In this document: positions 161 through 18,141 of the stretch, in pieces | Layout of the letters: each line of letters starts with the position of its first letter | How positions within the stretch are numbered: the first letter of the stretch is position 1 | From: Phycisphaerales bacterium | GTDB taxonomy: Bacteria > Planctomycetota > Phycisphaerae > Tepidisphaerales > Tepidisphaeraceae | Length of the DNA: 54,659 bases | Assembly (NCBI GenBank): GCA_020847545.1 | Contig: JADLBV010000015.1 | Coordinates: 1-54,659 of the forward strand | Direction: 5' to 3' | Program-made: the position numbers and the translations under genes | Notes under the pieces: generated by a model | The model's input: only the letters and a program-made list of their open reading frames with translations | Database searches by the model: none | Told to the model about the DNA's origin: nothing

Positions 161-192
161 AGTCATGCACGGCTGTTTAGCGGATAATATTC

Positions 193-1464: not shown

Positions 1465-1619
1465 TGTTGTAAGTCTTGTTGTGGACTGGAATTGTGTCGG
1501 GTGATGGCCGGAAATGTCGATGGATCATTCGACTGAATCTGGTCGTGCGGCGGTGGATCGGTTAGGAACCAAATTGAATTGCAGGCGAGCGGCTTGGCGA
1601 TTTAGCCGATTGAGAAGTT

Positions 1620-2543
1620 GTGAGCAGTGGACTTATGAGCAATACGTTGACAGGCGCATCCCCCATTCCCAACCGCAATGCGCAGACGCCGGATGAGTCG
1701 GCGCTGCCGGTTTTTGACCAGGAGATGGTGATTCAGCCGCAGCGCGGATGGATCGCGGTGAATGTCAGCGAGATGTGGCGGTATCGGGAGCTGCTGTTTT
1801 TCCTGATCTGGCGGGATGTGAAGGTCCGTTACAAGCAGACGGTGCTGGGGGTGGCGTGGGCGATCCTGCAGCCGCTGTTCAACATGATCGTCTTCACGGT
1901 GATCTTTGGAAAGGTGGCCGGGCTGGAGGATCATCTGCCGGCCCATTTGAAGGGGAAGTATCCGATCTTTGTTTATGTCGGGATGCTGGTCTGGACCTTT
2001 TTCAGCACCGGTGTGACGACCGGCGGGCAGTCGCTGGTGAACAGTCAGCACCTGCTGACCAAGATTTATTTCCCGCGGTTGTTTGTGCCGCTGGCGACGA
2101 TCGGCGGGGGAATGGTGGATTTGGCGATTTCGTTCGGGTTGTTCCTGGTGTTGATGCTGATTTACCAGGTGCCGCCGGGGTGGGGGTTGTTGGCGCTGCC
2201 GGTGTTGCTGCTGTTGACGTTGATGGCGACGGCGGGGGTGGCGTTTGTGATGTCGGCGCTGACGGTCAGTTATCGCGATTTTCGGTTCATCGTCCCCTTC
2301 ATGGTGCAGGCGTGGATGTATCTGAGCGCCACGTTTTACGATGTGGCCGATGTGGGTCGTTGGCAGTTGCCGGCCTCCATCAATCCGATGTTCGGGCTGA
2401 TCGGGGCGTATCGCTCCTGTCTGCTGGGGATGGAATGGCACTGGTTGCAACTGGGAATCTCGACAACGGTCACACTGGTGATGTTTTTCTTCGGGGTGTT
2501 TTATTTCAGGAAAGTGGAACGGAAGTTCGCGGATATCGCGTGA
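1620..2543 (+). CDS. wzm: ABC-2 polysaccharide exporter permease (Wzm-like)
   Basis: This is the transmembrane half of an ABC transporter that moves a finished lipid-linked polysaccharide across the inner membrane. At 307 residues it is slightly longer than the usual 260 to 290. After a roughly 50-residue cytoplasmic lead comes the typical amphipathic ELLFFLIWRDVKVRYKQT (about 55-73), the coupling-helix region of ABC-2 permeases, and then about six hydrophobic segments. The last of these precedes a short basic tail (FRKVERKFADIA). GTG at 1620 is used here; an in-frame ATG at 1635 is an alternative start. Its ATPase partner follows after a hairpin-rich 110-base spacer. Together they define an ABC-dependent export route for this cluster. 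Confidence 0.92.
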   Translation: MSSGLMSNTLTGASPIPNRNAQTPDESALPVFDQEMVIQPQRGWIAVNVSEMWRYRELLFFLIWRDVKVRYKQTVLGVAWAILQPLFNMIVFTVIFGKVAGLEDHLPAHLKGKYPIFVYVGMLVWTFFSTGVTTGGQSLVNSQHLLTKIYFPRLFVPLATIGGGMVDLAISFGLFLVLMLIYQVPPGWGLLALPVLLLLTLMATAGVAFVMSALTVSYRDFRFIVPFMVQAWMYLSATFYDVADVGRWQLPASINPMFGLIGAYRSCLLGMEWHWLQLGISTTVTLVMFFFGVFYFRKVERKFADIA

Positions 2544-2547
2544 TGTG

Positions 2548-2613
2548 ATTTTCGATTTTTGATTGGGTGATTTTTGATTTTCAATCGCAAATCAAAAATC
2601 AAAAATCGAAAAT
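2548..2613. repeat. AT-rich nested inverted repeat between wzm and wzt
   Basis: A perfect 17-base inverted repeat has arms ATTTTCGATTTTTGATT (2548-2564) and AATCAAAAATCGAAAAT (2597-2613). Inside it, GATTTTTGATT (2569-2579) pairs with AATCAAAAATC (2590-2600), so two alternative stems compete for the same right arm. The element consists almost entirely of GATTTTTGATT/AATCAAAAATC units. It is strikingly AT-rich against the flanking GC-rich genes. It is not followed by a U-tract on the + strand, so a simple terminator is unlikely. It may be a dispersed repeat or an attenuator that balances wzm and wzt. Confidence 0.8.
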
Positions 2614-2653
2614 GTCATGGCTGACCAGACAAGAACCCGGAGAGACTGAAGCT

Positions 2654-3952
2654 ATGTCGGACACTGTGATACATGTTGAAGGATTGGGCAAGGAGTACCG
2701 GCTTGGGGTGCAGGGGTCGAGTTATCCGACGCTGCGCGAGGCGATCATGGGGGTGGCGACGGCGCCGATTCGGCGATTGAAGGCGTTGCGGCATGGGGTG
2801 GAGGAGGAAGGGGATGCTTCTTCTCATTTCTGGGCGCTGCGGGATGTGAATTTTGAGGTTCCGCGCGGGCAGGTGATCGGGATTATCGGGCGCAATGGGG
2901 CGGGCAAGAGCACATTGCTGAAGATTTTGTCGCGGATCACCGAGCCGAGTTGCGGCAAGGCGGTGTTGCGCGGGCGGGTGGCGTCGCTGCTGGAGGTGGG
3001 GACGGGGTTTCATCCGGAATTGACGGGTCGGGAGAACATTTATCTCAACGGATCGATATTGGGGATGAGGCGGGTGGAGATCGAGCGCAAGTTCGATCAG
3101 ATCGTGGCGTTTTCGGAGGTGGAGAAGTTCCTGGACACGCCGGTGAAACGTTATTCCAGCGGCATGTATGTCCGGCTGGCGTTCGCGGTGGCGGCCCATC
3201 TGGAACCGGAAATCCTGATCGTCGATGAGGTGCTGGCGGTGGGGGATGCGGAGTTTCAGAAAAAATGCCTGGGGAAGATGCAGGACGTCTCGACCGGGCA
3301 GGGTCGGACGGTGTTGTTTGTCAGCCACAACATCTGGGCGGTGCGCAGTTTGTGTCAGCAGGTGCTGTATTTGAAACAGGGTCAGATGGCGGCGATCGGG
3401 CAGACCGAAGGGGTGGTGGACAAATATCTGAAGGATGCCACGCATCAAAATGGCGTGACGATGATGCGACAGTGGGGGCCGGGGGCCGCGGAAAATGAGA
3501 ATGTGCGGATGAGGCGGGTGCAACTGACGCCGCAATCGGGGGATGGGACGATGATCCGGGTGGATACACCCGTGGACCTGGAAGTGGAGTATGAAAATCT
3601 CAAGGGGGGCACGCCGCTGGTGTTGAATCTGGCGGTGCATACGTTGGATGGGACGCTGGTCTTTGTGTCGCAAACGACCAGCGACAAGAACTGGCACGGG
3701 CGGAAGTTTGAAAAAGGGGTCTATCGCAGCACCTGCCGAATCCCGGCCAATTTGCTCAACGATGGAACCTACCGGATTCGGGCGCTGTTTCTGGATGAGG
3801 CGGTGAAACATCTTTACAACCTCGACGATGCGATGTTTTTCACGGTTCACGACATCGCGCACCGCGAGGGAAGCTGGTATGGAAAATGGCTGGGGGTGGT
3901 CCGGCCGCAATTGCAGTGGACGACGGAACTGGTGCCCGCGATCGACGCCTGA
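2654..3952 (+). CDS. wzt: ABC polysaccharide exporter ATPase with sugar-binding tail (Wzt-like)
   Basis: This is the nucleotide-binding half of the exporter, 432 residues from the ATG at 2654 (MSDTVIHVEG). A longer reading from 2567 would be translated from the AT-rich hairpin, so I rejected it. Walker A is GIIGRNGAGKST, the ABC signature is YSSGMYVRLAFAVAA and Walker B is EILIVDEVLAVGD. The ATPase domain ends near residue 255. The remaining 170 residues form a beta-rich domain (about 275-410) like the Wzt C-terminal domain, which in studied O-antigen exporters recognises the terminal modification of the glycan. This implies that the exported polymer carries a capping group added by another enzyme in the cluster. 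It pairs with the permease at 1620. Confidence 0.93.
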   Translation: MSDTVIHVEGLGKEYRLGVQGSSYPTLREAIMGVATAPIRRLKALRHGVEEEGDASSHFWALRDVNFEVPRGQVIGIIGRNGAGKSTLLKILSRITEPSCGKAVLRGRVASLLEVGTGFHPELTGRENIYLNGSILGMRRVEIERKFDQIVAFSEVEKFLDTPVKRYSSGMYVRLAFAVAAHLEPEILIVDEVLAVGDAEFQKKCLGKMQDVSTGQGRTVLFVSHNIWAVRSLCQQVLYLKQGQMAAIGQTEGVVDKYLKDATHQNGVTMMRQWGPGAAENENVRMRRVQLTPQSGDGTMIRVDTPVDLEVEYENLKGGTPLVLNLAVHTLDGTLVFVSQTTSDKNWHGRKFEKGVYRSTCRIPANLLNDGTYRIRALFLDEAVKHLYNLDDAMFFTVHDIAHREGSWYGKWLGVVRPQLQWTTELVPAIDA

Positions 3953-3993
3953 AATCCCCGCACTCAGCGATTTGTGAGGATGAGAAACACCCC

Positions 3994-5181
3994 ATGAAAC
4001 CATTGCGCGTGGCGTTTTTAGCGCCGGAATTTGTGACGGAGATGACAGGGGAAGGGGGGCTGGCCAGCTATTTGAACAAGATTGCCAAGGCGCTGATGGG
4101 CGAGGGGCACGAGGTGGAGGTGTTTACACTTTCGGAGCGTGCGCCCCAGCGGATGATGTGGGAAGGGATGATGGTGCATCGGGTGGGGCCGGTGGAGAAT
4201 TTTCCGATGCGGTTGGGGCGGAAGATCATGGAGTTCATGCCGAGGCTGGGACTGGCCAAGTCGGTGGGGTCGTTGCGGGCGGCCAATGGTTTGGCCAAAG
4301 CGTTGGAGGATCGGGAGTCGCAAAAGCGGTTTGATCTGGTGCAAAGTTCGGATTTGGGGGCATCGGGGTTGATGGTGGGAGATCGGCCGTGGCGAAGTCA
4401 CATCGTACGGTGCAGTTGGGCGGCCGATTTGTTCATGGAGACGGATTGCCGGGGGATGGATCGGGACCACCGTGTCTTGTCGATGTTGGAACGATGGTGC
4501 ATTCGGCGAGCGCGGGGCGCCTATGCGCCCAGTCGGTGTATCGCGGAACATTTTCAGAGGCGGTTTGGCATGAAGATCGGCGTGGTGCGGCCACCGTTTG
4601 TGTTGGAAAATGAAAGCACCTCTCCACCGGCCAACCTGCCGGGTCGATTTTTACTGCATATTGGGAGATTGGGCCGGCGCAAGGGAACGGACCTGGTGGC
4701 CGAAGCGCTGCTGAGGGCGTGGGAAATCGAACCGCAGATCACGATGGTGTGGGCGGGCAAGCCGCAAAGCCCGGCCGAGATCGAAAAATTGCTGAATCGA
4801 CTTGGCCAAAGGCGCTCGCAGGTGGTGACGTTGGGGCCGGTGCCTAAACCGCAATTGTTTGCGATGATGAAGCGGGCCGATGCGGCGGTGCTGCCATCGC
4901 GCGTCGATAACCTGCCCAATGCGGCGATCGAGTGTGTACAGCATGGGTTGGGTGTGATCACCATGCGGGGGGCGAGCATTGATGAGATGGTGGAGGATGG
5001 TTCCAGCGGGGCGCTGGTGGCAAAGGGTGATGTGGCGGGTTTGGCCGATGCGATGGTCCGGGTGTGGCGCCGAGAATCCAAGTGGGTGGGGAAAGGTTTT
5101 GTACGGCCCGGAATTTTGGAGGAGATGAAACCGAAGCGTGCGGTGGCGGAGTTGTTGAGGTTTGCGGGGCTTGGACATTGA
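3994..5181 (+). CDS. Glycosyltransferase family 4 protein
   Basis: A 395-residue GT-B glycosyltransferase. The start is taken at the ATG at 3994 (MKPLRVAFLAPEF), where the family's first beta strand begins. An upstream in-frame start at 3886 would lie inside wzt in another frame. The glycine-rich acceptor loop GEGGLASYLNKIAKAL lies near residue 16. The C-terminal domain opens with FLLHIGRLGRRKGTD near 225. The region LPSRVDNLPNAAIECVQHG near 300 holds the acidic position expected in GT4 enzymes. There are no membrane segments. It is 41 bases downstream of wzt and 24 bases upstream of the next transferase, so co-transcription is likely. Specificity is unknown. Confidence 0.88.
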   Translation: MKPLRVAFLAPEFVTEMTGEGGLASYLNKIAKALMGEGHEVEVFTLSERAPQRMMWEGMMVHRVGPVENFPMRLGRKIMEFMPRLGLAKSVGSLRAANGLAKALEDRESQKRFDLVQSSDLGASGLMVGDRPWRSHIVRCSWAADLFMETDCRGMDRDHRVLSMLERWCIRRARGAYAPSRCIAEHFQRRFGMKIGVVRPPFVLENESTSPPANLPGRFLLHIGRLGRRKGTDLVAEALLRAWEIEPQITMVWAGKPQSPAEIEKLLNRLGQRRSQVVTLGPVPKPQLFAMMKRADAAVLPSRVDNLPNAAIECVQHGLGVITMRGASIDEMVEDGSSGALVAKGDVAGLADAMVRVWRRESKWVGKGFVRPGILEEMKPKRAVAELLRFAGLGH

Positions 5182-5205
5182 GGATTGTGACCAGTCGTGG
5201 AAACG

Positions 5206-6204
5206 ATGGATTTGAGTTTTGTGATTTGTGCCTACAACGCCGAGCGGCGGCTGCCGGGCGTTTTGGAGGCGCTGTCGCGGCAGGAGGCGGGGTCGGTGCG
5301 CTGGGAAGTGGTGGTGATCGACAACGCCAGCAAGGACAAGACCAGCGAGGTGGCGCGGGGGTTTGAGGGGAAGATTGCAGCGCCGTTGCGGGTGATCCGC
5401 GAGGATCGGCCGGGGTTGATCGAGGCCCGGCGGCGCGGGGCGAGCGAGGCGCGGGGGAGGTATCTCTCTTTTATTGATGATGACAACATTGTGGCCGAGG
5501 ATTGGGCGAGAAGGTGCGTGGAGTTTCTGGATGCCAATCCCAAGGTGGGATTCATCGGCGGGTTGATCGAGCCGTTGTTTGAGGATCCCACCACCCGGCC
5601 GGCCGACTTTTATGAGCGATTTGCCGATGGATTGGCGATCCGGGAATTGGGGCCGGTCGCGATGAAATTGTCGCAGCCACGGAGCGATCCGCCGCCGGGG
5701 GCGGGGTTGACGGGGCGGATTGAGTTGGTTCGGCTGATCCTGCTGGAGATCGGGTGTATGCTTCAGGGGCATACGGGTGGAAAGCTGACCAACGGGGAGG
5801 ATACGGAGATGGGGCTTATCGCGCAGCGGCTGGGGTGGGAGACATGGTATGTGCCGGCGTTGCGGATGAAGCATGTGATGCCGCCGGGCCGATTAACGGA
5901 GAAGTATCTGCGGAAATTGATCGCCGATGGGGCACAGAGCGGGCCTTGGCTGGATTATCTGCGCGGCCGGGAGTCGGAGCGGTCGAGGTTGGGATATCTG
6001 GCGCAATGGGGATTGTGGCGCGTGCGCGCGGGGAAGATGGCGTTGCTGGGATGGTTGAGAAAATCGGGGCATGAGCATTCGGAACTGTATCCGTTCTGGC
6101 GCAACATGTATCACAGCCGGGCGTGCGGGTATTGGTCGATGGCGATGAACGATCCGGTGCGAAAATTGCGGCGGACGCTGCGGGATTGTGTGAGTCATGG
6201 GTGA
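5206..6204 (+). CDS. Glycosyltransferase family 2 protein
   Basis: A 332-residue GT-A inverting transferase. The opening LSFVICAYNAERRLPGVLEAL and WEVVVIDNASKDKT form the nucleotide-binding strand pair. The metal-binding DxD equivalent is FIDDDN near residue 90. A likely catalytic acidic site is GEDTEMGLIAQRLGW near 205. A GTG at 5197 would add only three residues; ATG 5206 is preferred because it sits directly at the first strand. It overlaps the next gene by eight bases (6197-6204), which suggests translational coupling. No membrane anchor is evident. Confidence 0.87.
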   Translation: MDLSFVICAYNAERRLPGVLEALSRQEAGSVRWEVVVIDNASKDKTSEVARGFEGKIAAPLRVIREDRPGLIEARRRGASEARGRYLSFIDDDNIVAEDWARRCVEFLDANPKVGFIGGLIEPLFEDPTTRPADFYERFADGLAIRELGPVAMKLSQPRSDPPPGAGLTGRIELVRLILLEIGCMLQGHTGGKLTNGEDTEMGLIAQRLGWETWYVPALRMKHVMPPGRLTEKYLRKLIADGAQSGPWLDYLRGRESERSRLGYLAQWGLWRVRAGKMALLGWLRKSGHEHSELYPFWRNMYHSRACGYWSMAMNDPVRKLRRTLRDCVSHG

Positions 6205-7114
6205 TTTACAAGGCGCATTGCGTGATTTGTCGCTGGTGACGGCGAATTTTGGGGATGGGGTGGTGCTGCGCCGGGTGTTGGAGGATTGGTTTGCGTTTGT
6301 GGGTGGCCGGCCGGGGCAGGTGGTGGTGCTGGACAACGGGAGCGACCCGCAGACCCGGCGGGCGAGCATCGAATGTTATGAGGCGGGGTTGATCGACAAG
6401 CTGGTGCTGGTCCATCCGGATCATGATGACACAGGCAAGGACAAGGCGCACATCGCCGAACACACCGCGCCGGCGATTGCGGGGCGGCCATATTTGTTGT
6501 TTTTCAAATTTGATTGTTTGCCGTTTCGCAAGGGGCATGAGAATTGGTTGGTCGAGGCGATGGGGCATCTGGATCGGCCGGACACTTTTGCGTTTGGCGG
6601 GTCATTCAATTTGCCCTCGCGGCATCATGAGGCGTGGCCGGGGTGGTATTTCAGCCATAAATGTTCGGAAAATTTTGCCCTGTTGAAACGGGAGATGTTC
6701 ATCGAGTCGATGCGGGAATATGCCGGCGAGTACATCAGTTCGGGGTTCAGGGGCGAAAATCCCGGTTCGCGCACGGGTCAGGATCGGTATCTGGTGGAGC
6801 TGGCCTGGGAGCAATACATCGAACGGCATCAAAAATACACGCTGGTGCGGGAAGAGGATGAGAGCTGGACGATATTTCACACCAATGTGCATGGACAGAA
6901 GCTGGCCGAGACGAGGGAGAAGTATCTGAGGCGCGAGGATGTGGCGCGGTACATGAACGCCGCGCCGGTCAGCCGGATACCGGGGGCGACATACTATGGA
7001 TTGAAGCCGACGCGGTGGGAGGAGATGCGGTATTTGTTTGGCGCCTCGGCGGCCGGTCCGGCTTGGAGATGGATCAAGGATAAACTGCGGCCAAGGCGGG
7101 GGACCACCTCATGA
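6197..7114 (+). CDS. Divergent GT2-like glycosyltransferase
   Basis: A 305-residue protein that starts inside the end of the preceding transferase and overlaps the following one by ATGA (7111-7114). The N-terminus DLSLVTANFGDG and QVVVLDNGSDPQTR resembles the first two strands of GT2 enzymes. An expected DxD is not clear; FFKFDCLPFRKGHE near residue 98 is the best candidate for the metal-binding turn. The middle part, rich in W, F and H (WPGWYFSHKCSENFALLKRE), is typical of the domain that holds the acceptor. The position between two clear transferases supports a role in glycan assembly. The assignment rests on weak sequence similarity plus context, so a different nucleotide-sugar enzyme is possible. 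Confidence 0.65.
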   Translation: MGDLQGALRDLSLVTANFGDGVVLRRVLEDWFAFVGGRPGQVVVLDNGSDPQTRRASIECYEAGLIDKLVLVHPDHDDTGKDKAHIAEHTAPAIAGRPYLLFFKFDCLPFRKGHENWLVEAMGHLDRPDTFAFGGSFNLPSRHHEAWPGWYFSHKCSENFALLKREMFIESMREYAGEYISSGFRGENPGSRTGQDRYLVELAWEQYIERHQKYTLVREEDESWTIFHTNVHGQKLAETREKYLRREDVARYMNAAPVSRIPGATYYGLKPTRWEEMRYLFGASAAGPAWRWIKDKLRPRRGTTS

Positions 7115-8205
7115 AAATCACCTTTGTATTGGAGGCGGCCAGCTTGGCGGGTGGGGTGCGCGTGGTGGCGATTTATGCCAAGGAATTGAGCCGGCGCGGC
7201 CATCAGGTGTGCATCGTCTCAACGCAGCGGCCACCCTATTCGACGCGGCACAAGGTGAAATCGTTATTGAAAGGGGAGGGTTGGCTTGGATATCCCCCAT
7301 TGGGGCCAACGCATCTGGATGGATTGGATGTGGAGCAGCGGGTTCTCAGTCGTCATCGGCCGGTGCGGGACAAGGATGTGCCGGATGCGGATGTGGTGGT
7401 GGCGACCTGGTGGAAGACGGCCGACTGGGTGGCCAATTTGTCCCCCAAAAAAGGGGCAAAGGCTTATCTGATCCAGCATTATGAAACATGGGGTGGTCCG
7501 CCGGGGGAGGTGGATCGGACGTGGCGGCTGCCTTTGCATAAAATCGTGATTTCAAAGTGGCTGGCGGATTTGGCGCGGGACAAGTTCGGCGATGAGCATT
7601 ATTCGTGGGTTCCCAACAGCGTGGACACGGAGCAGTTTCATGCGCCGCAGCGCGACAAGCGGCCGGTGCCGACGGTGGGGTTGATGTACGCAACGATCCC
7701 GTTCAAGGGGATTGATGTGAGTCTCAAGGCGCTGGAGTTGGCGAAGAGGGATGTTGGGAATTTGCAATTGGTGGCCTTCGGCAAGGAAGAGCCGACGGCC
7801 GAGCTGCCATTGCCGGCCGGGTCAAAGATGGTTTATCTGCCGGCGCAGGATGCGATTGCGGATATTTATCGCCAATGCGATGTCTGGCTGTGCGGCAGTC
7901 GGGGGGAGGGTTTTCATCTGCCGCCACTGGAGGCGATGGCGTGCCGGTGTCCGGTGGTCTCCACGAAAGTGGGTGGGCCGATGGATGTGATCGTGGATGA
8001 TCGCAACGGGTATCTGGTGGATGTGGAGGATGCTCAGAGTTTGGCGGATCGGCTGGTGAGGGTGCTGACATTCAGCCCGCAGCGCTGGCGGGAGATGTCG
8101 GATGCGGCCTACGCCACGGCGACGGAATACACCTGGTCACAGGCAACCGACCGGCTGGAGGGGGCGTTTGCCAAGGCGATGGAGAGACGGGGAAGTCGGT
8201 TGTAA
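7111..8205 (+). CDS. Glycosyltransferase family 4 protein
   Basis: A 364-residue GT-B enzyme. The N-terminus MKITFVLEAASLAGGVRVV contains the usual glycine-rich acceptor-site loop. A short helix after SKWLADLARDKFG precedes VPNSVDTEQF, the inter-domain linker typical of this family. The nucleotide-binding half contains CGSRGEGFHLPPLEAMACRC near residue 265, with the EGFHLPPLE acidic pair well preserved. This form (GEGFHLPPLEAM) is common in hexosyltransferases of O-antigen clusters. It overlaps the previous gene by four bases. It closes the first run of cluster genes; the next 71 bases hold a separate promoter-like box for a non-glycan cassette. Confidence 0.88.
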   Translation: MKITFVLEAASLAGGVRVVAIYAKELSRRGHQVCIVSTQRPPYSTRHKVKSLLKGEGWLGYPPLGPTHLDGLDVEQRVLSRHRPVRDKDVPDADVVVATWWKTADWVANLSPKKGAKAYLIQHYETWGGPPGEVDRTWRLPLHKIVISKWLADLARDKFGDEHYSWVPNSVDTEQFHAPQRDKRPVPTVGLMYATIPFKGIDVSLKALELAKRDVGNLQLVAFGKEEPTAELPLPAGSKMVYLPAQDAIADIYRQCDVWLCGSRGEGFHLPPLEAMACRCPVVSTKVGGPMDVIVDDRNGYLVDVEDAQSLADRLVRVLTFSPQRWREMSDAAYATATEYTWSQATDRLEGAFAKAMERRGSRL

Positions 8206-8260
8206 TCAGATTCGCACATGGGATTCTGTGGAATTTCTACCGATTTCAACGGCGCTCGCT

Positions 8261-8266
8261 TATAAT
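8261..8266 (+). promoter_or_regulatory. Candidate -10 box for the phosphoribosyltransferase/SLOG cassette
   Basis: A perfect TATAAT lies only ten bases before the ATG at 8277. A transcript started from it would have a leader of about four bases, that is nearly leaderless. No good -35 hexamer is found at the standard distance. The box separates this cassette from the upstream glycosyltransferase run and suggests independent transcription. Confidence 0.4.
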
Positions 8267-8276
8267 TCAGATCGAG

Positions 8277-8867
8277 ATGAGGATCAATCCGATTCAAATT
8301 CAAGGAGCTTGGCGACTGGGATGGTCGTTGGACGTTCACACAACATCCAGCGAATTTCTTGGCTATGACCAGAATGGTCATCCACAATTCGATACCATTC
8401 GCTCGCCGCTTGGAGAGCTTCTCTACCAATTAAAATATCGCGGCCAGCAGACCGCCCCGCAGGTTGCGGAGGTGTTGGCGGAATTTTTCGCTGACAAACC
8501 CAACGCGCTTTCCCGCATCGATGTCATCGTTCCCATGCCGGCGTCCACCCTCAGGAACATTCAACCCGTCGCCGAAGTGGCAATGGCGCTTGGCAGGAAA
8601 CTCAACAAACAGGTGGATGTCGCCGCAGTCACAAAAGTTCGTGAAACACCGGGATTGAAAAACATACAGGATGCTGAGGAGAGGCGGGAATTGCTCGACG
8701 GCGCATTCCAGGCTGAAACTTCGCGGGTAACTGGAAAAGGCATTCTTCTGTTGGATGATTTGTATCGTTCAGGCGCGACCGCCAACGCCGTCACGCTTTC
8801 GCTGGTCACCGCCGGCGCGGCACGCGTCTATTTTTTGGCCATGACCCGAACCAGGAGCAATCTATGA
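8277..8867 (+). CDS. ComF-type phosphoribosyltransferase-like protein
   Basis: A 196-residue type I phosphoribosyltransferase-fold protein. The C-terminal third holds the PRPP-binding loop signature GILLLDDLYRSGATANAV (about 155-172), with two consecutive acidic residues followed by the S-G-A-T loop. An earlier stretch IDVIVPMPAST (about 82-92) matches the conserved VIPVP-like strand of ComF proteins. The zinc-binding cysteines that open typical ComF proteins are missing; instead there is a roughly 45-residue N-terminus of unknown type. The stop codon overlaps the start of the next gene (ATGA, 8864-8867), so the two proteins are probably made together. Possible roles are a nucleotide or base-handling enzyme or a sensor. 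I do not assign competence function. Confidence 0.75.
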   Translation: MRINPIQIQGAWRLGWSLDVHTTSSEFLGYDQNGHPQFDTIRSPLGELLYQLKYRGQQTAPQVAEVLAEFFADKPNALSRIDVIVPMPASTLRNIQPVAEVAMALGRKLNKQVDVAAVTKVRETPGLKNIQDAEERRELLDGAFQAETSRVTGKGILLLDDLYRSGATANAVTLSLVTAGAARVYFLAMTRTRSNL

Positions 8868-9388
8868 CTTCTGTTTTTATCGGGGGATCAAGGCGTATCA
8901 GCCGCATGAATGCGGAGTTGTCGCGCCGATTCGACAATATCATCCAAAAGCAACTTCGCATCATCATAGGCGACGCCAATGGGTTCGACCGCCTTGCACA
9001 GGACTATTTTGCAAAACATCACTACCCATCCGTGATCGTCTACTGCACCGGCGGAATCTGCCGGAACAACGTTGGCAATTGGCCATTACATGCGGTCGAG
9101 TACGCGGGTCGGGATCGCGGTCTTGAGTTCTATACCGCCAAGGATGATGCGATGCTCCACGATGCCGATTACGGGCTGTTCGGTTGGGATGGCAAGAGCA
9201 AGGGAACATTGCGAAATATTCGCAAGATGGCGGAACAGGGAAAGCCTTCCTCCGTGTATGTTTCTCCACTCGGGAAGTTTGTGACGGTTCGCGGCCCGCT
9301 GGATGTGTCATCACTGCTTGAACAGGGTGCAAAAGAAGACGCCCGGAAAATGCCGAACGAACATTCGACCATACCCAGCCTGATTTGA
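8864..9388 (+). CDS. SLOG/DprA-like Rossmann-fold protein
   Basis: A 174-residue protein with the features of the SLOG superfamily of nucleotide-binding Rossmann folds (DprA, LOG, YspA relatives). These are an N-terminal strand with VFIGGSRRISRMN (about 4-16), where the glycine-serine-arginine motif forms the phosphate loop, and IIIGDANGFDRLAQDYF (about 36-52), which matches the G-x-A-x-G-x-D region used by these folds to hold nucleotides. A later DYGLFGWDGKSKGT (about 104-117) is the expected substrate loop. No membrane or DNA-binding domain is visible. It is translationally coupled to the upstream phosphoribosyltransferase-like gene. Both sit inside a polysaccharide cluster without obvious relation to it. 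Function unknown; nucleotide binding is the safest expectation. Confidence 0.7.
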   Translation: MTSVFIGGSRRISRMNAELSRRFDNIIQKQLRIIIGDANGFDRLAQDYFAKHHYPSVIVYCTGGICRNNVGNWPLHAVEYAGRDRGLEFYTAKDDAMLHDADYGLFGWDGKSKGTLRNIRKMAEQGKPSSVYVSPLGKFVTVRGPLDVSSLLEQGAKEDARKMPNEHSTIPSLI

Positions 9389-9415
9389 TGAAAATGTTCT
9401 GTATTTCTCATTTTA

Positions 9416-9443
9416 TTCTTCCCAAAAGAGACTGGGGGAAGAA
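9416..9443. terminator. Stem-loop after the phosphoribosyltransferase/SLOG cassette
   Basis: TTCTTCCC (9416-9423) pairs with GGGAAGAA (9436-9443) about 28 bases after the SLOG gene stop. On the + strand no U-run follows, so it is at best a weak terminator. A TTTTATT stretch precedes it. It lies between the cassette and the second run of glycan genes and so fits a transcription boundary. Confidence 0.35.
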
Positions 9444-9479
9444 GAAAATACAATCAGCCGATAAGAAAAGGGGAGTTGC

Positions 9480-10529
9480 GTGGTGATCATGAACGGACAG
9501 TCCGATAATCCGGGTGCCCGCGGGGCGTTGTTGAGCATTGTTCTGCCGGCATATAACGAGCAGGAGGTGCTGGGGAAGACCTATGCGCGGTTTACGGCGA
9601 TGGGGCCGGTGTTGGAGAAGTGGGGGTTGGATTATGAATTGTTGTTTGTGAACGATGGCAGCCGGGATGGGACGGCTGATTTGCTCAATGAATTGGCGCA
9701 GCGGGATGGGCACGTCAGGGCGGTTCATCTGACGCGGAATTTCGGGCATCAGTCGGCGATCACGGCCGGTTTGACGGTGGCGCGGGGGGATGCGGTGGCG
9801 ATCATGGATTGCGATTTGCAGGATCCGCCGGAGGTGTTGCCGCAGTTTCTGGCCAAATGGCGCGAGGGGTTTCAGGTGGTCTATGCCGTGCGCAAGAAGC
9901 GCAAGGAATGGTTTGGCAAACGCCTGGCATACTGGTCGTTTTACCGGCTTTTGGCGGCGATCAGCGACTTGAAGATTCCGTTGGACAGCGGGGACTTTTG
10001 CGTGATGGACCGCTCGGCGGTGAATTTGCTCAACAGCCTGCCGGAACGACAGCGGTTTGTGCGCGGTTTGCGGACGTGGGTGGGGTTGCGGCAGACGGGG
10101 GTGGAGTATGAGCGCGACGCCCGAGCGGCCGGCCAGCCGCAATATACGCTGGCGAAACTGATCAAGCTGGCGATGGATGGGCTGGTCAGTTTTTCATCCG
10201 TGCCGTTGAAGCTGGTGACGAGGCTGGGGATTCTGGGTGTGATCGCTGGGATGATGCTGGGGTTGTGGGGGGTGGGGGTGACGATTTATGAGTGGAGCGG
10301 CCACATTCAGGGGCGCACGCCGCGCGGGTGGGCGAGCGTGGCGTGCCTGGTGTTGTTCACCTCATCGGTGCAGATGATTTCATTGGGGGTGATCGGGGAG
10401 TATTTGTCGCGAATCTTTCTGGAAGTGAAGGGCCGGCCGACGTTTTTGATCGCGAGCATCGTGCAACAGGGCGGGCCGGGTGATACGGCCAAGCCGACGG
10501 CGGCCATTTCGCGAGGCGTCGCTCCATGA
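9480..10529 (+). CDS. Membrane-anchored GT2 glycosyltransferase (polyprenyl-phosphate type)
   Basis: A 349-residue GT-A enzyme of the dolichol/undecaprenyl-phosphate glycosyltransferase family (DPM1/GtrB-like). The N-terminal catalytic domain opens with LSIVLPAYNEQEVLGKTY, continues with LLFVNDGSRDGT and IMDCDLQDPPEVL (the metal-binding DCDLQDPPE), and includes a loop ERQRFVRGLRTWVG near residue 185 that resembles the conserved RG-R-W motif. Two transmembrane helices follow near 245-265 and 285-315. The likely role is to load a sugar onto undecaprenyl phosphate at the cytoplasmic side, to be used by a membrane transferase such as the GT39-like protein two genes on. GTG 9480 or GTG 9483 follows a GGGGAG site; ATG 9489 is a third choice. 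It overlaps the next gene by ATGA. Confidence 0.88.
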   Translation: MVIMNGQSDNPGARGALLSIVLPAYNEQEVLGKTYARFTAMGPVLEKWGLDYELLFVNDGSRDGTADLLNELAQRDGHVRAVHLTRNFGHQSAITAGLTVARGDAVAIMDCDLQDPPEVLPQFLAKWREGFQVVYAVRKKRKEWFGKRLAYWSFYRLLAAISDLKIPLDSGDFCVMDRSAVNLLNSLPERQRFVRGLRTWVGLRQTGVEYERDARAAGQPQYTLAKLIKLAMDGLVSFSSVPLKLVTRLGILGVIAGMMLGLWGVGVTIYEWSGHIQGRTPRGWASVACLVLFTSSVQMISLGVIGEYLSRIFLEVKGRPTFLIASIVQQGGPGDTAKPTAAISRGVAP

Positions 10530-11893
10530 GTTTTTTGTCCATTGGAGTGATCTTTCTGTTCGCGGTGGCGGCGACGCTGTCGTGGGGGGCGGGGACCGCG
10601 CTGGCGGTGGTCTATCTGCCGGTGCTGATATTGCTCAACATGCTGCGCGAACTGGCGTTGCCGGGGGTGCCGGACATCGGCGCCGGCAGCGCGGTGATTT
10701 ACGGGATCATGCTGGCCTCGGTGCCTCGGATCGGCGAGTCGATGGGGATTCGCCTGAACCTGGTCGATCTGCTGATCCTGGCGCTGACCGGGTCGGCGAT
10801 GATCACATCGATGATCACCGAGCATCTGTACACGGCGGTGAGCACGGCCGGGTCCTATTTTCTGACATTTGTGGGGCCATATTTTCTGGCGCGGGTGGCG
10901 TTTTCATCGGCGAAAAACCGCGAGCGGGCGTTGTGGGGAATTTTGTTCTGCGTGCCGTTGCTGGTGCTGTTCGCGATGATTGAAGTGCGTTTCTGGCCGC
11001 ATTTTTACATGGATTTGCTGAGCCGGTTCAAGATTTATCAGGAAGCCACGGATGTGGCGATGCGCCGATATGGGCTGTTTCGGGCGCAGGTGTCGTTTGC
11101 CCATCCGATCGACTTTGGCAACGCCTCGGTCATTTTGCTGGGGATGCTCTATGCCCTGGCGGGCAGCACACGGGTGGGGTTGAAGAACATGTATGTGCGC
11201 TGCGCGCTGTTGGGGATGTTGTTTTGCGCGTTGACCTCATTGAGTTTCACCAGCTACATCGCGCTGGCGGCGCTGGGGTCGATCTTTTTCGTGATGCGGT
11301 GGTTTAAGCTGGCGCGGTCGATGCTGGTGGCGGGGGTCATCCTGGGGATCGTGGGTGGGGTGATGGTGACGGGGTGGTTCATGACCGTGGACTCCACCTC
11401 CCGTGAAGGGGCGGGGGCGCTGGAAGGAAGCGTGCGGAACCGGGCGCTGATCATTCAAAGCTCGCTGGAAAAGGTGAAGAGCGCTGGGCCGTTCGGATTC
11501 GGATCAAATTTGAGTCAGGAGGAGCTGGGGATCGAAAGCGTGGACAACACCTATCTGCTGCTGATCATGCGGCAGGGGTGGGTCTACATGGCGATGTGGC
11601 TGGCGATCCCGCTGGTGCTGGCTTGGCGCGGCGGGCGGGCGCTCAAGCGGTGCGTAAACGACAATGAAATGCGGCCGGTGGTGGGGGCGCTGGCGACGAT
11701 TTTCGCGATGATGGTGGCGATGTACACGGTCTGGTTCGGCTTCACCTATGCGCTGCTCTGGATGGTGGCGCTGGGATTGACGGTGACACTGATGGACATT
11801 TGCCTGGAACGAACCCCCATGCGCCGGCCGATGCCGGTCCGATTGATGAACCGGCCAAGACAGCCCCAGATTGAGGGGGTGGGGCATGGGTGA
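10526..11893 (+). CDS. O-antigen polymerase/ligase-like membrane protein
   Basis: A 455-residue polytopic membrane protein with about ten to twelve hydrophobic segments and a large periplasmic loop between residues about 290 and 345 (STSREGAGALEGSVRNRALI), followed by a GPFGFGSNLSQE-type stretch. This layout, a late large loop with conserved basic residues and a glycine-rich stretch after it, is that of the Wzy polymerase and WaaL ligase families. Sequence alone does not separate the two. It is translationally coupled to the polyprenyl-phosphate GT2 gene before it and overlaps the next gene by eight bases. A polymerase or ligase beside an ABC exporter is unusual, since ABC-dependent pathways normally polymerise in the cytoplasm, so a ligase or a second polymer is possible. 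Confidence 0.7.
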   Translation: MSFLSIGVIFLFAVAATLSWGAGTALAVVYLPVLILLNMLRELALPGVPDIGAGSAVIYGIMLASVPRIGESMGIRLNLVDLLILALTGSAMITSMITEHLYTAVSTAGSYFLTFVGPYFLARVAFSSAKNRERALWGILFCVPLLVLFAMIEVRFWPHFYMDLLSRFKIYQEATDVAMRRYGLFRAQVSFAHPIDFGNASVILLGMLYALAGSTRVGLKNMYVRCALLGMLFCALTSLSFTSYIALAALGSIFFVMRWFKLARSMLVAGVILGIVGGVMVTGWFMTVDSTSREGAGALEGSVRNRALIIQSSLEKVKSAGPFGFGSNLSQEELGIESVDNTYLLLIMRQGWVYMAMWLAIPLVLAWRGGRALKRCVNDNEMRPVVGALATIFAMMVAMYTVWFGFTYALLWMVALGLTVTLMDICLERTPMRRPMPVRLMNRPRQPQIEGVGHG

Positions 11894-13247
11894 ACCATCG
11901 TGTTGCAGGACCAAATGGATGTTGATCGCGCTGTGCGCGCTGGGGCTGGCGCTGCGCCTGGGGGTGATTTTCAAGACGCAAAGTTACCGGTTCAATCCCG
12001 GCGCGATGGAGCATGATTCGATCGCGCGGGGGTTGCTGCATGGACAGGGGTTCAGTTTCGGGGATTTTGGGTATTACGGCCCTTCCAGCGTGCAGTCTCC
12101 ACCCTATCCTGTGCTGCTGGCGGGATTTTTCACGATTTTCGGCGAGGCGACGCCGGCGGCCTACGCGGCCGCGATGGTCTTCAACGCGCTGGTGGGGAGT
12201 TTGGCGGTCTGGCTGACGTATTTGTTGGCGCGGACGCTGGGTGGAAGCATCGGGGTGGGGTTGTTGGCGGCGGCGGCGTGCGCGGTCTGGCCAACACAGG
12301 TGTATGCATCGAACTTCGTGCAGGCGATCGATCTGATCATCGCGGCGCAGACGGCGATGGTGGTGCTGTTTTATCGGGGAGTGCGAACCGGATCGGCCTG
12401 GACGTGGGCCGCCTTCAGTCTGGTGGCGACACTGGCGGCGCTGACCGAGCCGGTGTTGCTGCCAATCGCGGCATTTACCGGGATTTTAATCCTGTTCTGG
12501 CGGGGGTTGGCATTGCGGCTGCGGATACGCAACGCGGCCATTTTGCTGGGGATGGCGCTGGTCGTGATCGGGCCGTGGACGGTGCGCAACCGGATGGTGC
12601 ATGGGGCGTGGGTGCCGATTAAAAGCACCTTCTGGGTGAACGTCTGGAAGGGGGCGAACGATTACGCCACCGGCACGGACCGGTTGAAGATCACCCCCGA
12701 ACAAAAAAAACAACTCGAAGAGCAACTCCTGACGGCCGATGACCGGCACATGAGACAGGCGGGTGCGGATGAGGCGCGGCAATATGACATGTTGACGCCG
12801 CAACAACGCTCGCGGCTCAACGGCCACACGGAGATCGAACGGGAAAAGGTGTTTCAGGAATTCGCAACGCAGTGGATATCCGCCCATCCGATGGGTTATG
12901 CGAAGCTGTGTCTGATCCGGCTGGGCAAGACGCTGTGGATCGACTGGGACAACCCCAAATCTTACAACGTGGCCTATGTCGCATCGCGGGCGATCATCGT
13001 CGTTTTGTCGGCGATCGGACTGGTCTTGGCGATCCGAAAACGGTGGTCTCTTTTGTATCCGGTCTTGTTGATCGGGTCGTGCATTTTGACCTATTCGCTG
13101 ACATTGACGGCCGCCCGGTTCAGCATTCCGTTTGAGCCGTTTCAGTTGTGCCTGTCAGCGCTGACGTTGAATTGTGCGTATATTTCAATCCGCCGGCCGG
13201 CGGCGGGTGGAGCGGTGGCGGCGGCTTCATCCGGGCAGGGCACATGA
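11886..13247 (+). CDS. GT39/ArnT-like membrane glycosyltransferase
   Basis: A 453-residue polytopic protein resembling the PMT/ArnT superfamily (GT-C fold). These enzymes use polyprenyl-phosphate sugars and transfer to acceptors on the periplasmic side. The first helix (LIALCALGLALRLGVIF) is followed by a loop with the acidic pattern MEHDSIARGLLHGQGFSFG, where the conserved acidic residue of the family sits. YGPSSVQSPPYPVLLAG matches the family's PPG/PPY stretch. Eight or more further membrane helices follow, and a soluble insert lies between residues about 265 and 330. ATG 11886 is preferred over the upstream TTG at 11871. It overlaps the next gene by ATGA at 13244. The partner for making its donor may be the GT2 protein at 9480. 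Confidence 0.72.
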   Translation: MGEPSCCRTKWMLIALCALGLALRLGVIFKTQSYRFNPGAMEHDSIARGLLHGQGFSFGDFGYYGPSSVQSPPYPVLLAGFFTIFGEATPAAYAAAMVFNALVGSLAVWLTYLLARTLGGSIGVGLLAAAACAVWPTQVYASNFVQAIDLIIAAQTAMVVLFYRGVRTGSAWTWAAFSLVATLAALTEPVLLPIAAFTGILILFWRGLALRLRIRNAAILLGMALVVIGPWTVRNRMVHGAWVPIKSTFWVNVWKGANDYATGTDRLKITPEQKKQLEEQLLTADDRHMRQAGADEARQYDMLTPQQRSRLNGHTEIEREKVFQEFATQWISAHPMGYAKLCLIRLGKTLWIDWDNPKSYNVAYVASRAIIVVLSAIGLVLAIRKRWSLLYPVLLIGSCILTYSLTLTAARFSIPFEPFQLCLSALTLNCAYISIRRPAAGGAVAAASSGQGT

Positions 13248-14443
13248 GCGAATCGCGGCAACAGGATGCGAAGGTGCTGTGCATCGTGCCGTCGATGAGG
13301 ATTCGCCACGAACCAAACGGCACGGTGACGCTGACGCGAAAATTTCTGGAGGGTGTCGAGGCGTATCGAAGAGAGTGGGGCGGCCCGGTGCGGGTAATTG
13401 CACAGGAGGGTGGGGATGATGGGCTGGACGGTGTGTCGATTCGACGTGAGGAGGTTCCGTTTGAGCTTCGGTTGATCGATTTTGCAAGCCCGGCAATGGA
13501 CGAACAATTCCGTGATGCGGCCGTGGTGTTGGGGGCATTGCATCACAATCAATTGCCGATGGTGGATCGCTGCTTGGAACATCATGTGCCGGTGGCGCTG
13601 ATCGCCGAACAGAGCGTGCGGACGCGCTGGCAGATCACCCGCGCGGAGACGGGCAATCCGCTGCTGAGGCTTCGGCGTGGCTGGTGGAACCGTGGTTTGG
13701 AAAAACGCTTTCGCGCCCTGTTGCCAAAGATTGCCGGTGTGCAATGCAACGGAACACCGACATTCAACGATTATCGCGCAATCAATCGCAATCCGCTTCT
13801 TTTTTTCGACACCCGCGTGACGGAGTCGATGCTGGTGGATGAATCGACACTGAAAATGCGATTGGATGAACTGCTGGCGGGCGGGCCGTTGCGGCTGCTC
13901 TTTTCCGGCAGACTTGTGGCGATCAAAGGGGTGGATCATCTGCCGTTGTTGGCGGTCCATCTGCGAAAACTGGGGGTGAAATTCACACTCGACATCTGTG
14001 GCGGCGGAAACCTGCAAAATCAACTGGCCGGCGAGATTCAACACCACGATTTAAGCCAACAGGTGAGATTGCGGGGTGTGCTCGATTTTGAGAAGGAATT
14101 GCTCCCGTGGGTCGGCCGACAGGCGGATTTGTTTGTCTGTTGTCATCGACAGGGTGATCCTTCCTGCACTTATCTGGAGACGATGTCGTGCGGTGTGCCG
14201 ATTGTCGGGTATGACAACGAGGCGTTCGCCGGGCTGGTGGCGCATTGCGGGGTGGGGTGGCTGTCACCGATGGACAACCCGGCCGCGTTGGCCCAAAAAA
14301 TCGCACAACTGGATCGGGATCGACCCGCTCTGGCCCAGGCGGCCGAATCATCGCTGAAATTCGCACGCGGGCATACATTTGAAACAACCATGCGAAAACG
14401 GGTGGAACATCTGGCACTGTGCGCCAAGGAGGCGGCCCGATGA
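13244..14443 (+). CDS. Glycosyltransferase family 4 protein
   Basis: A 399-residue GT-B enzyme. ATG 13244 overlaps the previous stop codon by four bases and precedes the first strand KVLCIVPSMRIRHEPNG. In-frame codons further upstream would put the start inside the preceding gene. The second domain begins with LRLLFSGRLVAIKGVDHLP near residue 215. The donor-binding acidic pair is in GDPSCTYLETMSCGVPIVG near 305. The sequence between has the usual helical linker. No signal or membrane segment is seen. The gene is tightly packed with both neighbours. Confidence 0.87.
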   Translation: MSESRQQDAKVLCIVPSMRIRHEPNGTVTLTRKFLEGVEAYRREWGGPVRVIAQEGGDDGLDGVSIRREEVPFELRLIDFASPAMDEQFRDAAVVLGALHHNQLPMVDRCLEHHVPVALIAEQSVRTRWQITRAETGNPLLRLRRGWWNRGLEKRFRALLPKIAGVQCNGTPTFNDYRAINRNPLLFFDTRVTESMLVDESTLKMRLDELLAGGPLRLLFSGRLVAIKGVDHLPLLAVHLRKLGVKFTLDICGGGNLQNQLAGEIQHHDLSQQVRLRGVLDFEKELLPWVGRQADLFVCCHRQGDPSCTYLETMSCGVPIVGYDNEAFAGLVAHCGVGWLSPMDNPAALAQKIAQLDRDRPALAQAAESSLKFARGHTFETTMRKRVEHLALCAKEAAR

Positions 14444-15405
14444 GTCATCCACAACTGGCCATCGTGATCGTCAATTACCGCACGGCCGGTCTGACGATTG
14501 ATTGTCTGCGCTCGCTGGAACCGCAGGCGTTGTCAATCGGGGCAAAAGTATTCGTCACCGACAATCTGTCAGGTGACGACTCGATCCAACGCATCAGCAC
14601 GGCCATCGCGGAAAACGGATGGTCCAACTGGGCGACATTGATGCCGCTGGAACGCAATGGCGGGTTCGCATATGGGAACAACGCGGCCATCAAAGTGTTG
14701 TTACAGTCGGACGTTCGTCCGGATTACATCCTGTTATTGAATCCAGACACGCTGGCACGGGATGAGGCGGTCGCGGCATTGCTCGATTTCATGGAAAAAC
14801 ATCCGCACATCGGGATCGCCGGCAGTCGGCTGGAAGACCCCGATGGGACACCCCAGCGGTCGGCGTTTCGGTTTCACACCATCGCCAGTGAATTTGAGGG
14901 GGGAGTGCGGTTGTCGTTGGTCAGTCGATTGTTGAAGAACAAGCTGGTGGCTCCGCCGGTGTCGGATGAGGCATGTCCAACTCAATGGCTGGCCGGGGCG
15001 AGCATGATGGTTCGTCGGCAGGTGTTTGAACAGATCGGGCTGCTGGATGAGGCATACTTCATGTATTTTGAGGAGGTCGATTTTTGCCTGCGTTCCGCCC
15101 GCGCCGGGTGGCAATGCTGGTATGTGCCGACCAGCCGGGTGGTGCATCTGGTGGGACAGGCATCGGGGGTGACCGACCCGCGCTTGCGCAAACGCCGGCC
15201 GGATTATTGGTTTGAATCGCGTCGGAGGTATTTTATCAAGAATCATGGGGCGTTGCGTGCGATGCTGGCGGATGCGGCGTGGGCGGTTGGGTTTTCATTG
15301 TGGAGGGTGAGACGGTTTTTGCAACGTCGGCCGGACAATGATCCGCCGAAATTGCTGGCGGATTTCGTTCGGCACAGTGTGTTTGTGCGAGGATTCGCGG
15401 CATGA
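14440..15405 (+). CDS. GT2 glycosyltransferase, rhamnosyltransferase-like (WbbL type)
   Basis: A 321-residue GT-A transferase. Landmarks are LAIVIVNYRTAGLTIDCL at the N-terminus, the VTDNLSGDDS strand end, NGGFAYGNNAAI near residue 75, and LLNPDT near 107 as the metal site. AGASMMVRRQVFEQIG is followed by FMYFEEVDFCLR near 210, the EEVD acidic site expected for the catalytic base. This combination of NGGFAYGNN, LNPD and FxYFEEVDFCLR is the usual pattern of WbbL/RfbF rhamnosyltransferases, but the sugar is inferred from family resemblance only. Start ATG 14440 overlaps the previous stop. Confidence 0.85.
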   Translation: MSHPQLAIVIVNYRTAGLTIDCLRSLEPQALSIGAKVFVTDNLSGDDSIQRISTAIAENGWSNWATLMPLERNGGFAYGNNAAIKVLLQSDVRPDYILLLNPDTLARDEAVAALLDFMEKHPHIGIAGSRLEDPDGTPQRSAFRFHTIASEFEGGVRLSLVSRLLKNKLVAPPVSDEACPTQWLAGASMMVRRQVFEQIGLLDEAYFMYFEEVDFCLRSARAGWQCWYVPTSRVVHLVGQASGVTDPRLRKRRPDYWFESRRRYFIKNHGALRAMLADAAWAVGFSLWRVRRFLQRRPDNDPPKLLADFVRHSVFVRGFAA

Positions 15406-15950
15406 ACGCCACCACCGACAACAATGAGCCAATCGGGCTGCTGGGGCAGATTCGCGAAGACCATGCCGCGCACGGACGCGACTGGACGCGCCCCGGATTT
15501 CGCGCGGTGGCGGCCCATCGGTTTGGGGTGTGGCGGATGAACGTACGGCCGAAGATCCTGCGCGCCCCCTTGAGCATGATTTATCGCTGGATGTACCGCC
15601 GATGCCGCAACCGGTATGGGATCGAGCTGCCGTATACCGTGAAACTGGGCCGCCGGGTCATCATCGAACATCAAAGCGGCATCGTCATTCATGGCAATTG
15701 CGAGATCGGGGATGATTCGATCATCCGCCAGGGGGTGACGCTGGGAAATCGGTCGCTGGACAAGCCGTTTGATGCGCCGAAATTGGGGTGCCGGGTAAAC
15801 GTGGGGGCGGGGGCCAAGATATTGGGCGCTGTGACCATCGGGGATGATGCGGCCATCGGGGCCAACGCCGTGGTGTTGATTGATGTGCCGGCCGGCGCGG
15901 TGGCCGTGGGAATCCCGGCAAGGCTTATCGCCGGCGGGGGCAAGCGATGA
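15402..15950 (+). CDS. Serine acetyltransferase-like hexapeptide protein
   Basis: A 182-residue left-handed beta-helix acyltransferase of the serine acetyltransferase (CysE) type. A helical N-terminus (about 1-75) precedes hexapeptide repeats from RRVIIEHQSGIVIHGNCEIGDD onwards. The conserved QGVTLGN loop is at about 107-113, with the acetyl-CoA-side turns ending in VGIPARLIAG. It lies between glycosyltransferase genes and overlaps both by ATGA. An O-acetyl modification of the polymer or its precursor is the likely role, rather than cysteine synthesis; similar proteins are common in exopolysaccharide clusters. The typical catalytic His lies in the EHQSGIVIHG region. The modification could be what the Wzt sugar-binding tail recognises, which is speculation. 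Confidence 0.85.
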   Translation: MNATTDNNEPIGLLGQIREDHAAHGRDWTRPGFRAVAAHRFGVWRMNVRPKILRAPLSMIYRWMYRRCRNRYGIELPYTVKLGRRVIIEHQSGIVIHGNCEIGDDSIIRQGVTLGNRSLDKPFDAPKLGCRVNVGAGAKILGAVTIGDDAAIGANAVVLIDVPAGAVAVGIPARLIAGGGKR

Positions 15951-18135: not shown

Positions 18136-18141
18136 ATCACG

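What the first reader, a model, noticed from the sequence alone, without database searches (positions are those of the whole stretch)
8261..9388. Phosphoribosyltransferase-SLOG two-gene cassette embedded in a polysaccharide cluster
A ComF-like PRPP-fold protein without its zinc finger is coupled by ATGA to a SLOG/DprA-like nucleotide-binding protein. It has its own TATAAT and a hairpin on the far side, and splits the glycosyltransferase run. SLOG and phosphoribosyltransferase folds are both known in nucleotide-based conflict or signalling systems. The pair could be a small nucleotide-signalling or defence module, or a modified-base or cytokinin-like nucleotide pathway.
Basis: partly seen in the sequence, partly recalled or inferred. 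Interest (0 to 1): 0.62.

Follow-up and report, generated by a model that had tools for sequence, protein, structure and literature searches.

The report
Mobile phosphoribosyltransferase–SLOG toxin–antitoxin-type pair
Two small overlapping genes, found on plasmids, prophages and in anti-phage gene islands of many bacteria, look like a stripped-down toxin–antitoxin defence pair related to the known ShosTA and PsyrTA systems, and have landed by chance inside a sugar-polymer gene cluster here.

Summary
The two genes are real: a 196-aa ComF-like phosphoribosyltransferase (8277-8867) overlaps by ATGA a 174-aa SLOG/DprA-like protein (8864-9388). A same-genus genome is collinear across the region at 83-89% identity but lacks just this ~1.24 kb, so the cassette looks recently gained and the polysaccharide context is incidental. 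The pair is a widespread, patchy, mobile family on plasmids, in prophages and in genomes of several phyla. It occurs in 33 of 5,426 E. coli genomes, including the validated P2 defence hotspot (gpQ-gpA) and an island beside Septu and Hachiman. Full-length PRTases have the SLOG gene directly downstream, with one variant exception, whereas intact SLOG genes often follow a broken or missing PRTase, as expected of toxin and antitoxin. Some SLOGs carry antitoxin-type HTH domains. All 17 PRTases tested match the PsyrT and ShosT toxin models. The predicted folds match ShosT (Z 11.7) and the Rossmann domain of ShosA/DprA (Z 11.4-11.9). The SLOG partner is about half the size of ShosA, and the window copy does not match the ShosA or PsyrA models. 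Best reading: a minimal ShosTA/PsyrTA-like toxin–antitoxin and anti-phage module, a new variant of a known kind. Toxicity and defence were not tested.

The parts
8277..8867 (+). PRTase gene: predicted toxin/effector, 196 aa, ComF-like phosphoribosyltransferase without zinc finger; PRPP loop ILLLDDLYRSGAT at residues 156-168
   Evidence: PADLOC PsyrT 2.3e-17 and ShosT 9.6e-11; family alignment invariant D160, D161, G166, K53, Y54, R93, K128; AF2 pLDDT 95.8; fold match HpComF Z 16.1, PurF Z 12.0, ShosT-PRPP 8zvc Z 11.7
8864..9388 (+). SLOG gene: predicted antitoxin/sensor, 174 aa, single Rossmann SLOG domain (residues 1-155) with a low-confidence tail; conserved F5, G8, GDAxGxD (36-42), RNN (67-69), KD (93-94), WDxxSxGT (108-115)
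   Evidence: AF2 pLDDT 89.5; Foldseek top hits HpDprA and ShosA 8zva; VIA YpsA Z 13.1, DprA 11.9, LOG 11.8, ShosA 11.4, ThsA 10.0; conserved columns
8196..9433 (.). foreign insert: interval absent from the same-genus relative G869 (about 100 bp of unrelated spacer there); boundaries approximate
   Evidence: blastn collinearity 192-8195 and 9434-18982 at 83-89%; two glycosyltransferases adjacent in G869 and close in G870; GC3 0.59-0.61 versus 0.68-0.82 in neighbours
9416..9443 (.). weak inverted repeat at the junction; not an intrinsic terminator; 3' arm is host leader sequence
7111..8205 (+). flanking glycosyltransferase group 1, host gene, not part of the module
   Evidence: PF13692 9e-25; 88% identical orthologue in G869
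9480..10529 (+). flanking glycosyltransferase family 2, host gene, not part of the module
   Evidence: PF00535 6e-32

Best explanation
A minimal, mobile toxin-antitoxin-type anti-phage / plasmid-maintenance module of the ShosTA-PsyrTA kind. Shown here: a conserved two-gene operon; intact PRPP-loop and SLOG motifs; co-evolution; mobile-element and defence-locus contexts; decay of the PRTase gene beside intact SLOG genes; structural relation to ShosT and ShosA. Inferred: (1) the PRTase uses PRPP-Mg and is toxic when free, by PRPP consumption or phosphoribosyl transfer to a base or nucleic acid (target unknown); (2) the SLOG protein binds and restrains it; (3) the SLOG pocket, of the type that binds ssDNA in DprA, AMP in LOG or ADP-ribose compounds in ThsA and TRPM, perceives an infection product and releases the PRTase, which arrests the cell; (4) on plasmids the pair also acts as an addiction module, and in some lineages an HTH on the SLOG adds autoregulation.
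For: All 17 PRTases tested hit PADLOC PsyrT and ShosT. PRTase model matches ShosT with PRPP, SLOG model matches ShosA and DprA. PRTase-anchored viral scan: 19/19 loci have the SLOG gene directly downstream, from a 4-bp overlap to a 12-bp gap. Genome-anchored: 6 of 7 genomes. Asymmetric decay: intact SLOG with PRTase broken by stop, frameshift, deletion, truncation or IS in L009, L011, L014, L018, L026, L059, L074 and absent in L012; PRTases without SLOG are truncated in L069, L070. SLOG fusions to antitoxin HTH (PF21716, 7.5e-23). Located in the P2 gpQ-gpA hotspot (hotspot defined in PMC9122126), just before ogr in another P2-like prophage, beside PtuA and HamAB, beside parDE/parA/R-M. Mirror-tree r = 0.87, Mantel p = 2e-4. 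Precedent: RqlH PRTase domain is genotoxic, needs D663, is bound and restrained by DprA-like RqlI (PMC4670107); a DprA+PRTase pair protects against T7 and lambda (PMC9122126).
Against: No toxicity, neutralisation, complex or phage data for this family. Most searches were anchored on SLOG, which undersamples lone PRTases; some broken PRTases in MAGs could be assembly errors (but L018, L026, L074 are complete plasmid records). One genome (G784) has the PRTase fused to a ~330-aa domain with no SLOG. SLOG-only relatives exist on Mesorhizobium/Shinella plasmids. The PRTase domain of RqlH alone was not toxic in E. coli. No complex prediction was possible.
Confidence: 0.74

Rival explanations
1. A stand-alone ComFC-DprA-like pair for handling incoming single-stranded DNA (DNA uptake or plasmid establishment), not a toxin.
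For: Closest solved fold of the PRTase is HpComF (Z 16.1) and the SLOG resembles DprA; ComFC and DprA both handle ssDNA in transformation (established knowledge); carriage by conjugative plasmids (55 of 96 PLSDB records) could suit establishment of entering DNA.
Against: No zinc finger, no helicase, no DprA C-terminal domain; prophage and P2-hotspot locations; PRTase decays while SLOG stays, which an ordinary cooperative pair does not predict; HTH fusions of antitoxin type.
Confidence: 0.1
2. A nucleotide-signalling pair: the PRTase makes a modified nucleotide from PRPP that the SLOG senses or processes.
For: PRPP loop and SLOG phosphate-binding motifs both conserved; SLOG fold matches ThsA and TRPM ADP-ribose sensors and LOG.
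Against: No third effector gene was seen travelling with the pair; LOG motif PGGxGTxxE absent; TA-like decay asymmetry.
Confidence: 0.1
3. A pure plasmid/prophage addiction module with no anti-phage role.
For: Next to repA, parA, parDE on plasmids; recombinase genes adjacent.
Against: Presence in the validated P2 defence hotspot and beside Septu and Hachiman.
Confidence: 0.2
4. Part of the polysaccharide cluster (nucleotide-sugar metabolism).
For: Physical position only.
Against: Absent from the otherwise collinear cluster of a same-genus genome and from a same-family genome; annotated relatives elsewhere are not in polysaccharide loci.
Confidence: 0.01

Closest known systems
ShosTA toxin-antitoxin / anti-phage system (PADLOC PDLC03961/PDLC03962; PDB 8zva-8zvd)
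   Same: Two genes, PRTase toxin plus DprA/SLOG-fold partner; both folds matched; both kinds occur in the P2 hotspot; ShosT HMM hit 9.6e-11
   Different: ShosA is ~300 aa and DprA-like, and the ShosA model does not hit the window SLOG; ShosT of PfAC02a carries extra domains (annotated HAD; CxxC pairs at the C-terminus); in L042 the gene order is antitoxin first; here PRTase 196 aa first, SLOG 174 aa second
PsyrTA / RqlHI
   Same: PRTase domain most similar by HMM (2.3e-17); toxin gene first, partner overlapping downstream
   Different: PsyrT has an N-terminal RecQ-like helicase, absent here; PsyrA is a longer DprA-like protein
ComFC/GntX competence-type PRTases
   Same: Fold (HpComF Z 16.1), TIGR00201 9e-13
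   Different: No zinc finger; distinct conserved N-terminal beta region; next to SLOG in nearly all cases
DprA, YpsA, LOG, ThsA SLOG proteins
   Same: SLOG Rossmann fold, Z 10-13
   Different: No DprA C-terminal domain, no LOG motif, own RNN and WDxxSxGT signature; no Pfam SLOG family reaches its cut-off for the window protein
Type III-A retron PRTase effectors
   Same: 4 of 17 members hit a PRTase_III-A model
   Different: No reverse transcriptase annotated next to the pair in the plasmid and E. coli loci read

Membership tests
ShosTA | PRTase effector related to ShosT | tested here: met
   HMM 9.6e-11, 17/17 members, fold Z 11.7 over 167 residues
ShosTA | ~300-aa DprA-like ShosA partner recognised by the ShosA model | tested here: not met
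   Window SLOG no hit at E<=10; 3 of 21 members only weakly, best 0.0026; 174 aa; the Rossmann domain fold alone matches, Z 11.4
ShosTA | Toxicity of ShosT neutralised by partner | not testable with these tools
   needs expression experiments
ShosTA | Anti-phage activity | not testable with these tools
   only indirect: P2 hotspot and defence island
PsyrTA/RqlHI | RecQ-like helicase fused to C-terminal PRTase | tested here: not met
   ORF1 is 196 aa and matches only model positions 538-686 of 689
PsyrTA/RqlHI | DprA-like PsyrA/RqlI partner | tested here: not met
   window SLOG no hit at E<=10; 2 of 21 members weakly, best 0.0053; hhalign of the SLOG alignment A3 against PsyrA of L079 prob 1.9
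ComFC | N-terminal four-cysteine zinc finger | tested here: not met
   no cysteine in ORF1; own-genome ComF has it
LOG phosphoribohydrolase | PGGxGTxxE motif | tested here: not met
   WDGKSKGTLRN in the window; PGG and the final Glu not found at these columns across the family
Toxin-antitoxin systems (general) | Toxin gene not kept intact without antitoxin gene | tested here: met
   exception G784 fusion variant; SLOG-anchored sampling bias
Toxin-antitoxin systems (general) | Partner proteins form a complex | not testable with these tools
   only single-protein models available

The most novel reading that the evidence does not exclude
An unrecognised, cross-phylum PRTase-SLOG immune family in which a bare SLOG domain without the DprA tail acts as a nucleotide- or ssDNA-gated switch for a PRPP-dependent effector. 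This would be the minimal form of the ShosTA/PsyrTA design, with swappable regulators: HTH-fused SLOG, SLOG with a long C-terminal extension (L008), and a beta-rich domain fused directly to the PRTase (G784).
Probability: 0.45. Interest if true: 0.68.

Novelty: new variant of a known kind. Interest (0 to 1): 0.52.

Why it matters
If true, toxic-PRTase immunity extends to a small, mobile cassette that model-based defence finders are likely to miss, because the window's partner protein does not hit the known antitoxin models. The cassette is carried by Klebsiella and Enterobacter plasmids and by E. coli prophages, so it may contribute to phage resistance and plasmid persistence there. Its minimal size makes it a tractable system for two open questions: what toxic PRTases do with PRPP, and what DprA/SLOG antitoxins sense.

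Tried and rejected
Phage-genome collection search with the SLOG gave no match, and with the PRTase only weak hits. PADLOC ShosA and PsyrT models used as markers across genomes were too broad (they rang in nearly every genome, presumably on ordinary DprA and RecQ), so they could not give a clean count of reference systems. Own promoter and terminator hairpin: rejected. Cytokinin/LOG pathway: rejected on motif. Polysaccharide function: rejected by the empty site. Alignment A1 was too diverse for a pattern scan; a closer subset worked. The PRTase tree keeps the family together (45/84) and PsyrT, ShosT and ComF separate, but the reference branches are very long, so it does not say which is the nearest sister. 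Prediction of the complex was not available. The library search returned no paper describing the ShosTA structures, and supplementary files (Rousset 2022 hotspot table, DefensePredictor system list) could not be read, so prior testing of this exact pair cannot be excluded.

Full report
Observation. Two + strand ORFs, 8277-8867 (196 aa) and 8864-9388 (174 aa), overlap as ATGA between two glycosyltransferase genes. ORF1 is a ComF-type phosphoribosyltransferase (TIGR00201 9e-13) with an intact PRPP loop and no cysteine; ORF2 is a small SLOG protein. The GC and GC skew of the interval differ from the neighbours (GC3 0.59-0.61 against 0.68-0.82). The claimed promoter is a lone TATAAT without a -35, and the hairpin is not better than chance.

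Insertion. A same-genus genome (G869) is collinear with the window from 192 to 18982 at 83-89% identity except for 8196-9433, which is missing; there the two glycosyltransferases are separated by only 139 bp. In a same-family genome (G870) the two glycosyltransferases are also close together. The cassette is therefore most simply a recent gain, without a recognisable integrase. Its place among glycosyltransferases says nothing about function. In the phylum only 2 of 294 sampled genomes, the window's own included, carry the SLOG.

Family. Relatives of the SLOG lie in GTDB genomes assigned to several phyla (14 loci), on 96 PLSDB plasmid records and on IMG/VR contigs (25 loci, four of them distant). 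In most loci where enough sequence is held, the PRTase is directly upstream with a 4-bp overlap or a gap of a few bases. A PRTase-anchored scan of viral contigs gave 19 of 19 loci with the SLOG downstream (16 of these contigs were already in the SLOG-anchored set). PRTase-anchored genome samples gave 4 of 289 and 3 of 274 genomes; 6 of these 7 have the SLOG, and one (G784) has the PRTase fused to a beta-rich domain instead. The two proteins' distance matrices correlate at r = 0.87 (Mantel p 2e-4), and both genes are under purifying selection in close pairs.

Toxin-antitoxin signature. The PRTase gene is broken or gone beside an intact SLOG in L009 (internal deletion), L011 and L014 (only the last 15-26 residues left), L012 (none found), L018 (premature stop), L026 (frameshift), L059 (truncated) and L074 (IS3 insertion). 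The only PRTases without SLOG, apart from G784, are truncated (L069, L070). The sampling is biased towards SLOG-containing loci, and MAG errors may account for some breaks, but three cases (L018, L026, L074) are complete plasmid records. Some SLOGs carry C-terminal HTH domains, two of them matching the addiction-module antidote family PF21716.

Context. On plasmids the pair sits near repA, parA, parDE, recombinases and restriction systems in several records. In E. coli, 33 of 5,426 genomes carry it, and all 33 listed places fall on two annotated genes. In CFSAN061762 it lies between the P2-family portal gene and the replication endonuclease, which is the hotspot where Rousset et al. found validated defence systems, among them a DprA+PRTase pair active against T7 and lambda (PMC9122126). 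In STEC409 it lies just before ogr in a P2-like prophage. In strain 1105 it lies next to PtuA (Septu) and near HamA/HamB (Hachiman).

Fold and relations. AlphaFold2 gives pLDDT 95.8 for the PRTase and 89.5 for the SLOG. The PRTase matches HpComF (Z 16.1), PurF (12.0) and ShosT with PRPP (11.7). The SLOG matches YpsA (13.1), DprA (11.9), LOG (11.8), ShosA (11.4) and ThsA (10.0), rows that are partly tied; Foldseek ranks HpDprA and ShosA at the top. All 17 PRTases tested hit the PADLOC PsyrT and ShosT models, whereas the SLOGs hit ShosA/PsyrA only weakly in a few members and not in the window. A profile comparison of the SLOG alignment with a DprA-like ShosA (L042) gave 85% probability over 115 columns, and with a PsyrA no significant match. 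The PRTase tree keeps the family apart from PsyrT, ShosT and ComF but is limited by long branches.

Mechanism. By analogy with RqlHI, where the PRTase domain is needed for genotoxicity, depends on its PRPP-pocket aspartate, and is bound by the DprA-like RqlI (PMC4670107), the PRTase is taken as toxin and the SLOG as antitoxin and sensor. This step is inferred. What the SLOG senses and what the PRTase modifies are not known.

Verdict. A real, mobile, conserved two-gene module, most likely a minimal ShosTA/PsyrTA-like toxin-antitoxin and defence system: a new variant of a known kind. It is not filed as a member of ShosTA or PsyrTA because the defining partner (and for PsyrT the helicase) is absent. 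Prior experimental testing under another name cannot be excluded: DefensePredictor lists a validated system with a PRTase that could not be inspected (PMC13092281).

Noticed in passing
L115 (G784:C117) 454-2055 and L116: PRTase of the same family fused behind a ~330-aa beta-rich domain without Pfam match, in two nearby copies without SLOG; possibly another regulator of the same effector.
   Followed up: partly
L008 6001-7242 (Fibrobacter): SLOG with a ~230-aa C-terminal extension lacking any Pfam match, containing an LRHGLVH stretch reminiscent of HEPN proteins.
   Followed up: partly
L071 3001-3534, L073 3001-3537: SLOG-only subfamily on Mesorhizobium/Shinella replicons near DUF2493 and DUF736 genes, without PRTase.
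   Followed up: partly
L076 (Klebsiella pneumoniae IncFIB/IncFII plasmid) 3417-4555: The pair lies downstream of repA on this Klebsiella plasmid (22 Klebsiella plasmid records carry the SLOG), a likely unrecognised maintenance module.
   Followed up: no
L074 (Enterobacter cloacae pCRE37_1) 1007-3552: IS3-family insertion inside the PRTase gene with intact SLOG, beside a restriction-modification system.
   Followed up: yes
L129 6870-8653 (E. coli P2-like prophage): RelA/SpoT-domain protein plus ParA-like ATPase pair next to the PRTase-SLOG pair in the P2 hotspot; only weak matches to PADLOC candidate systems.
   Followed up: partly
L064-L067: Distant phage-contig SLOGs (28% identity) without adjacent PRTase.
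   Followed up: no
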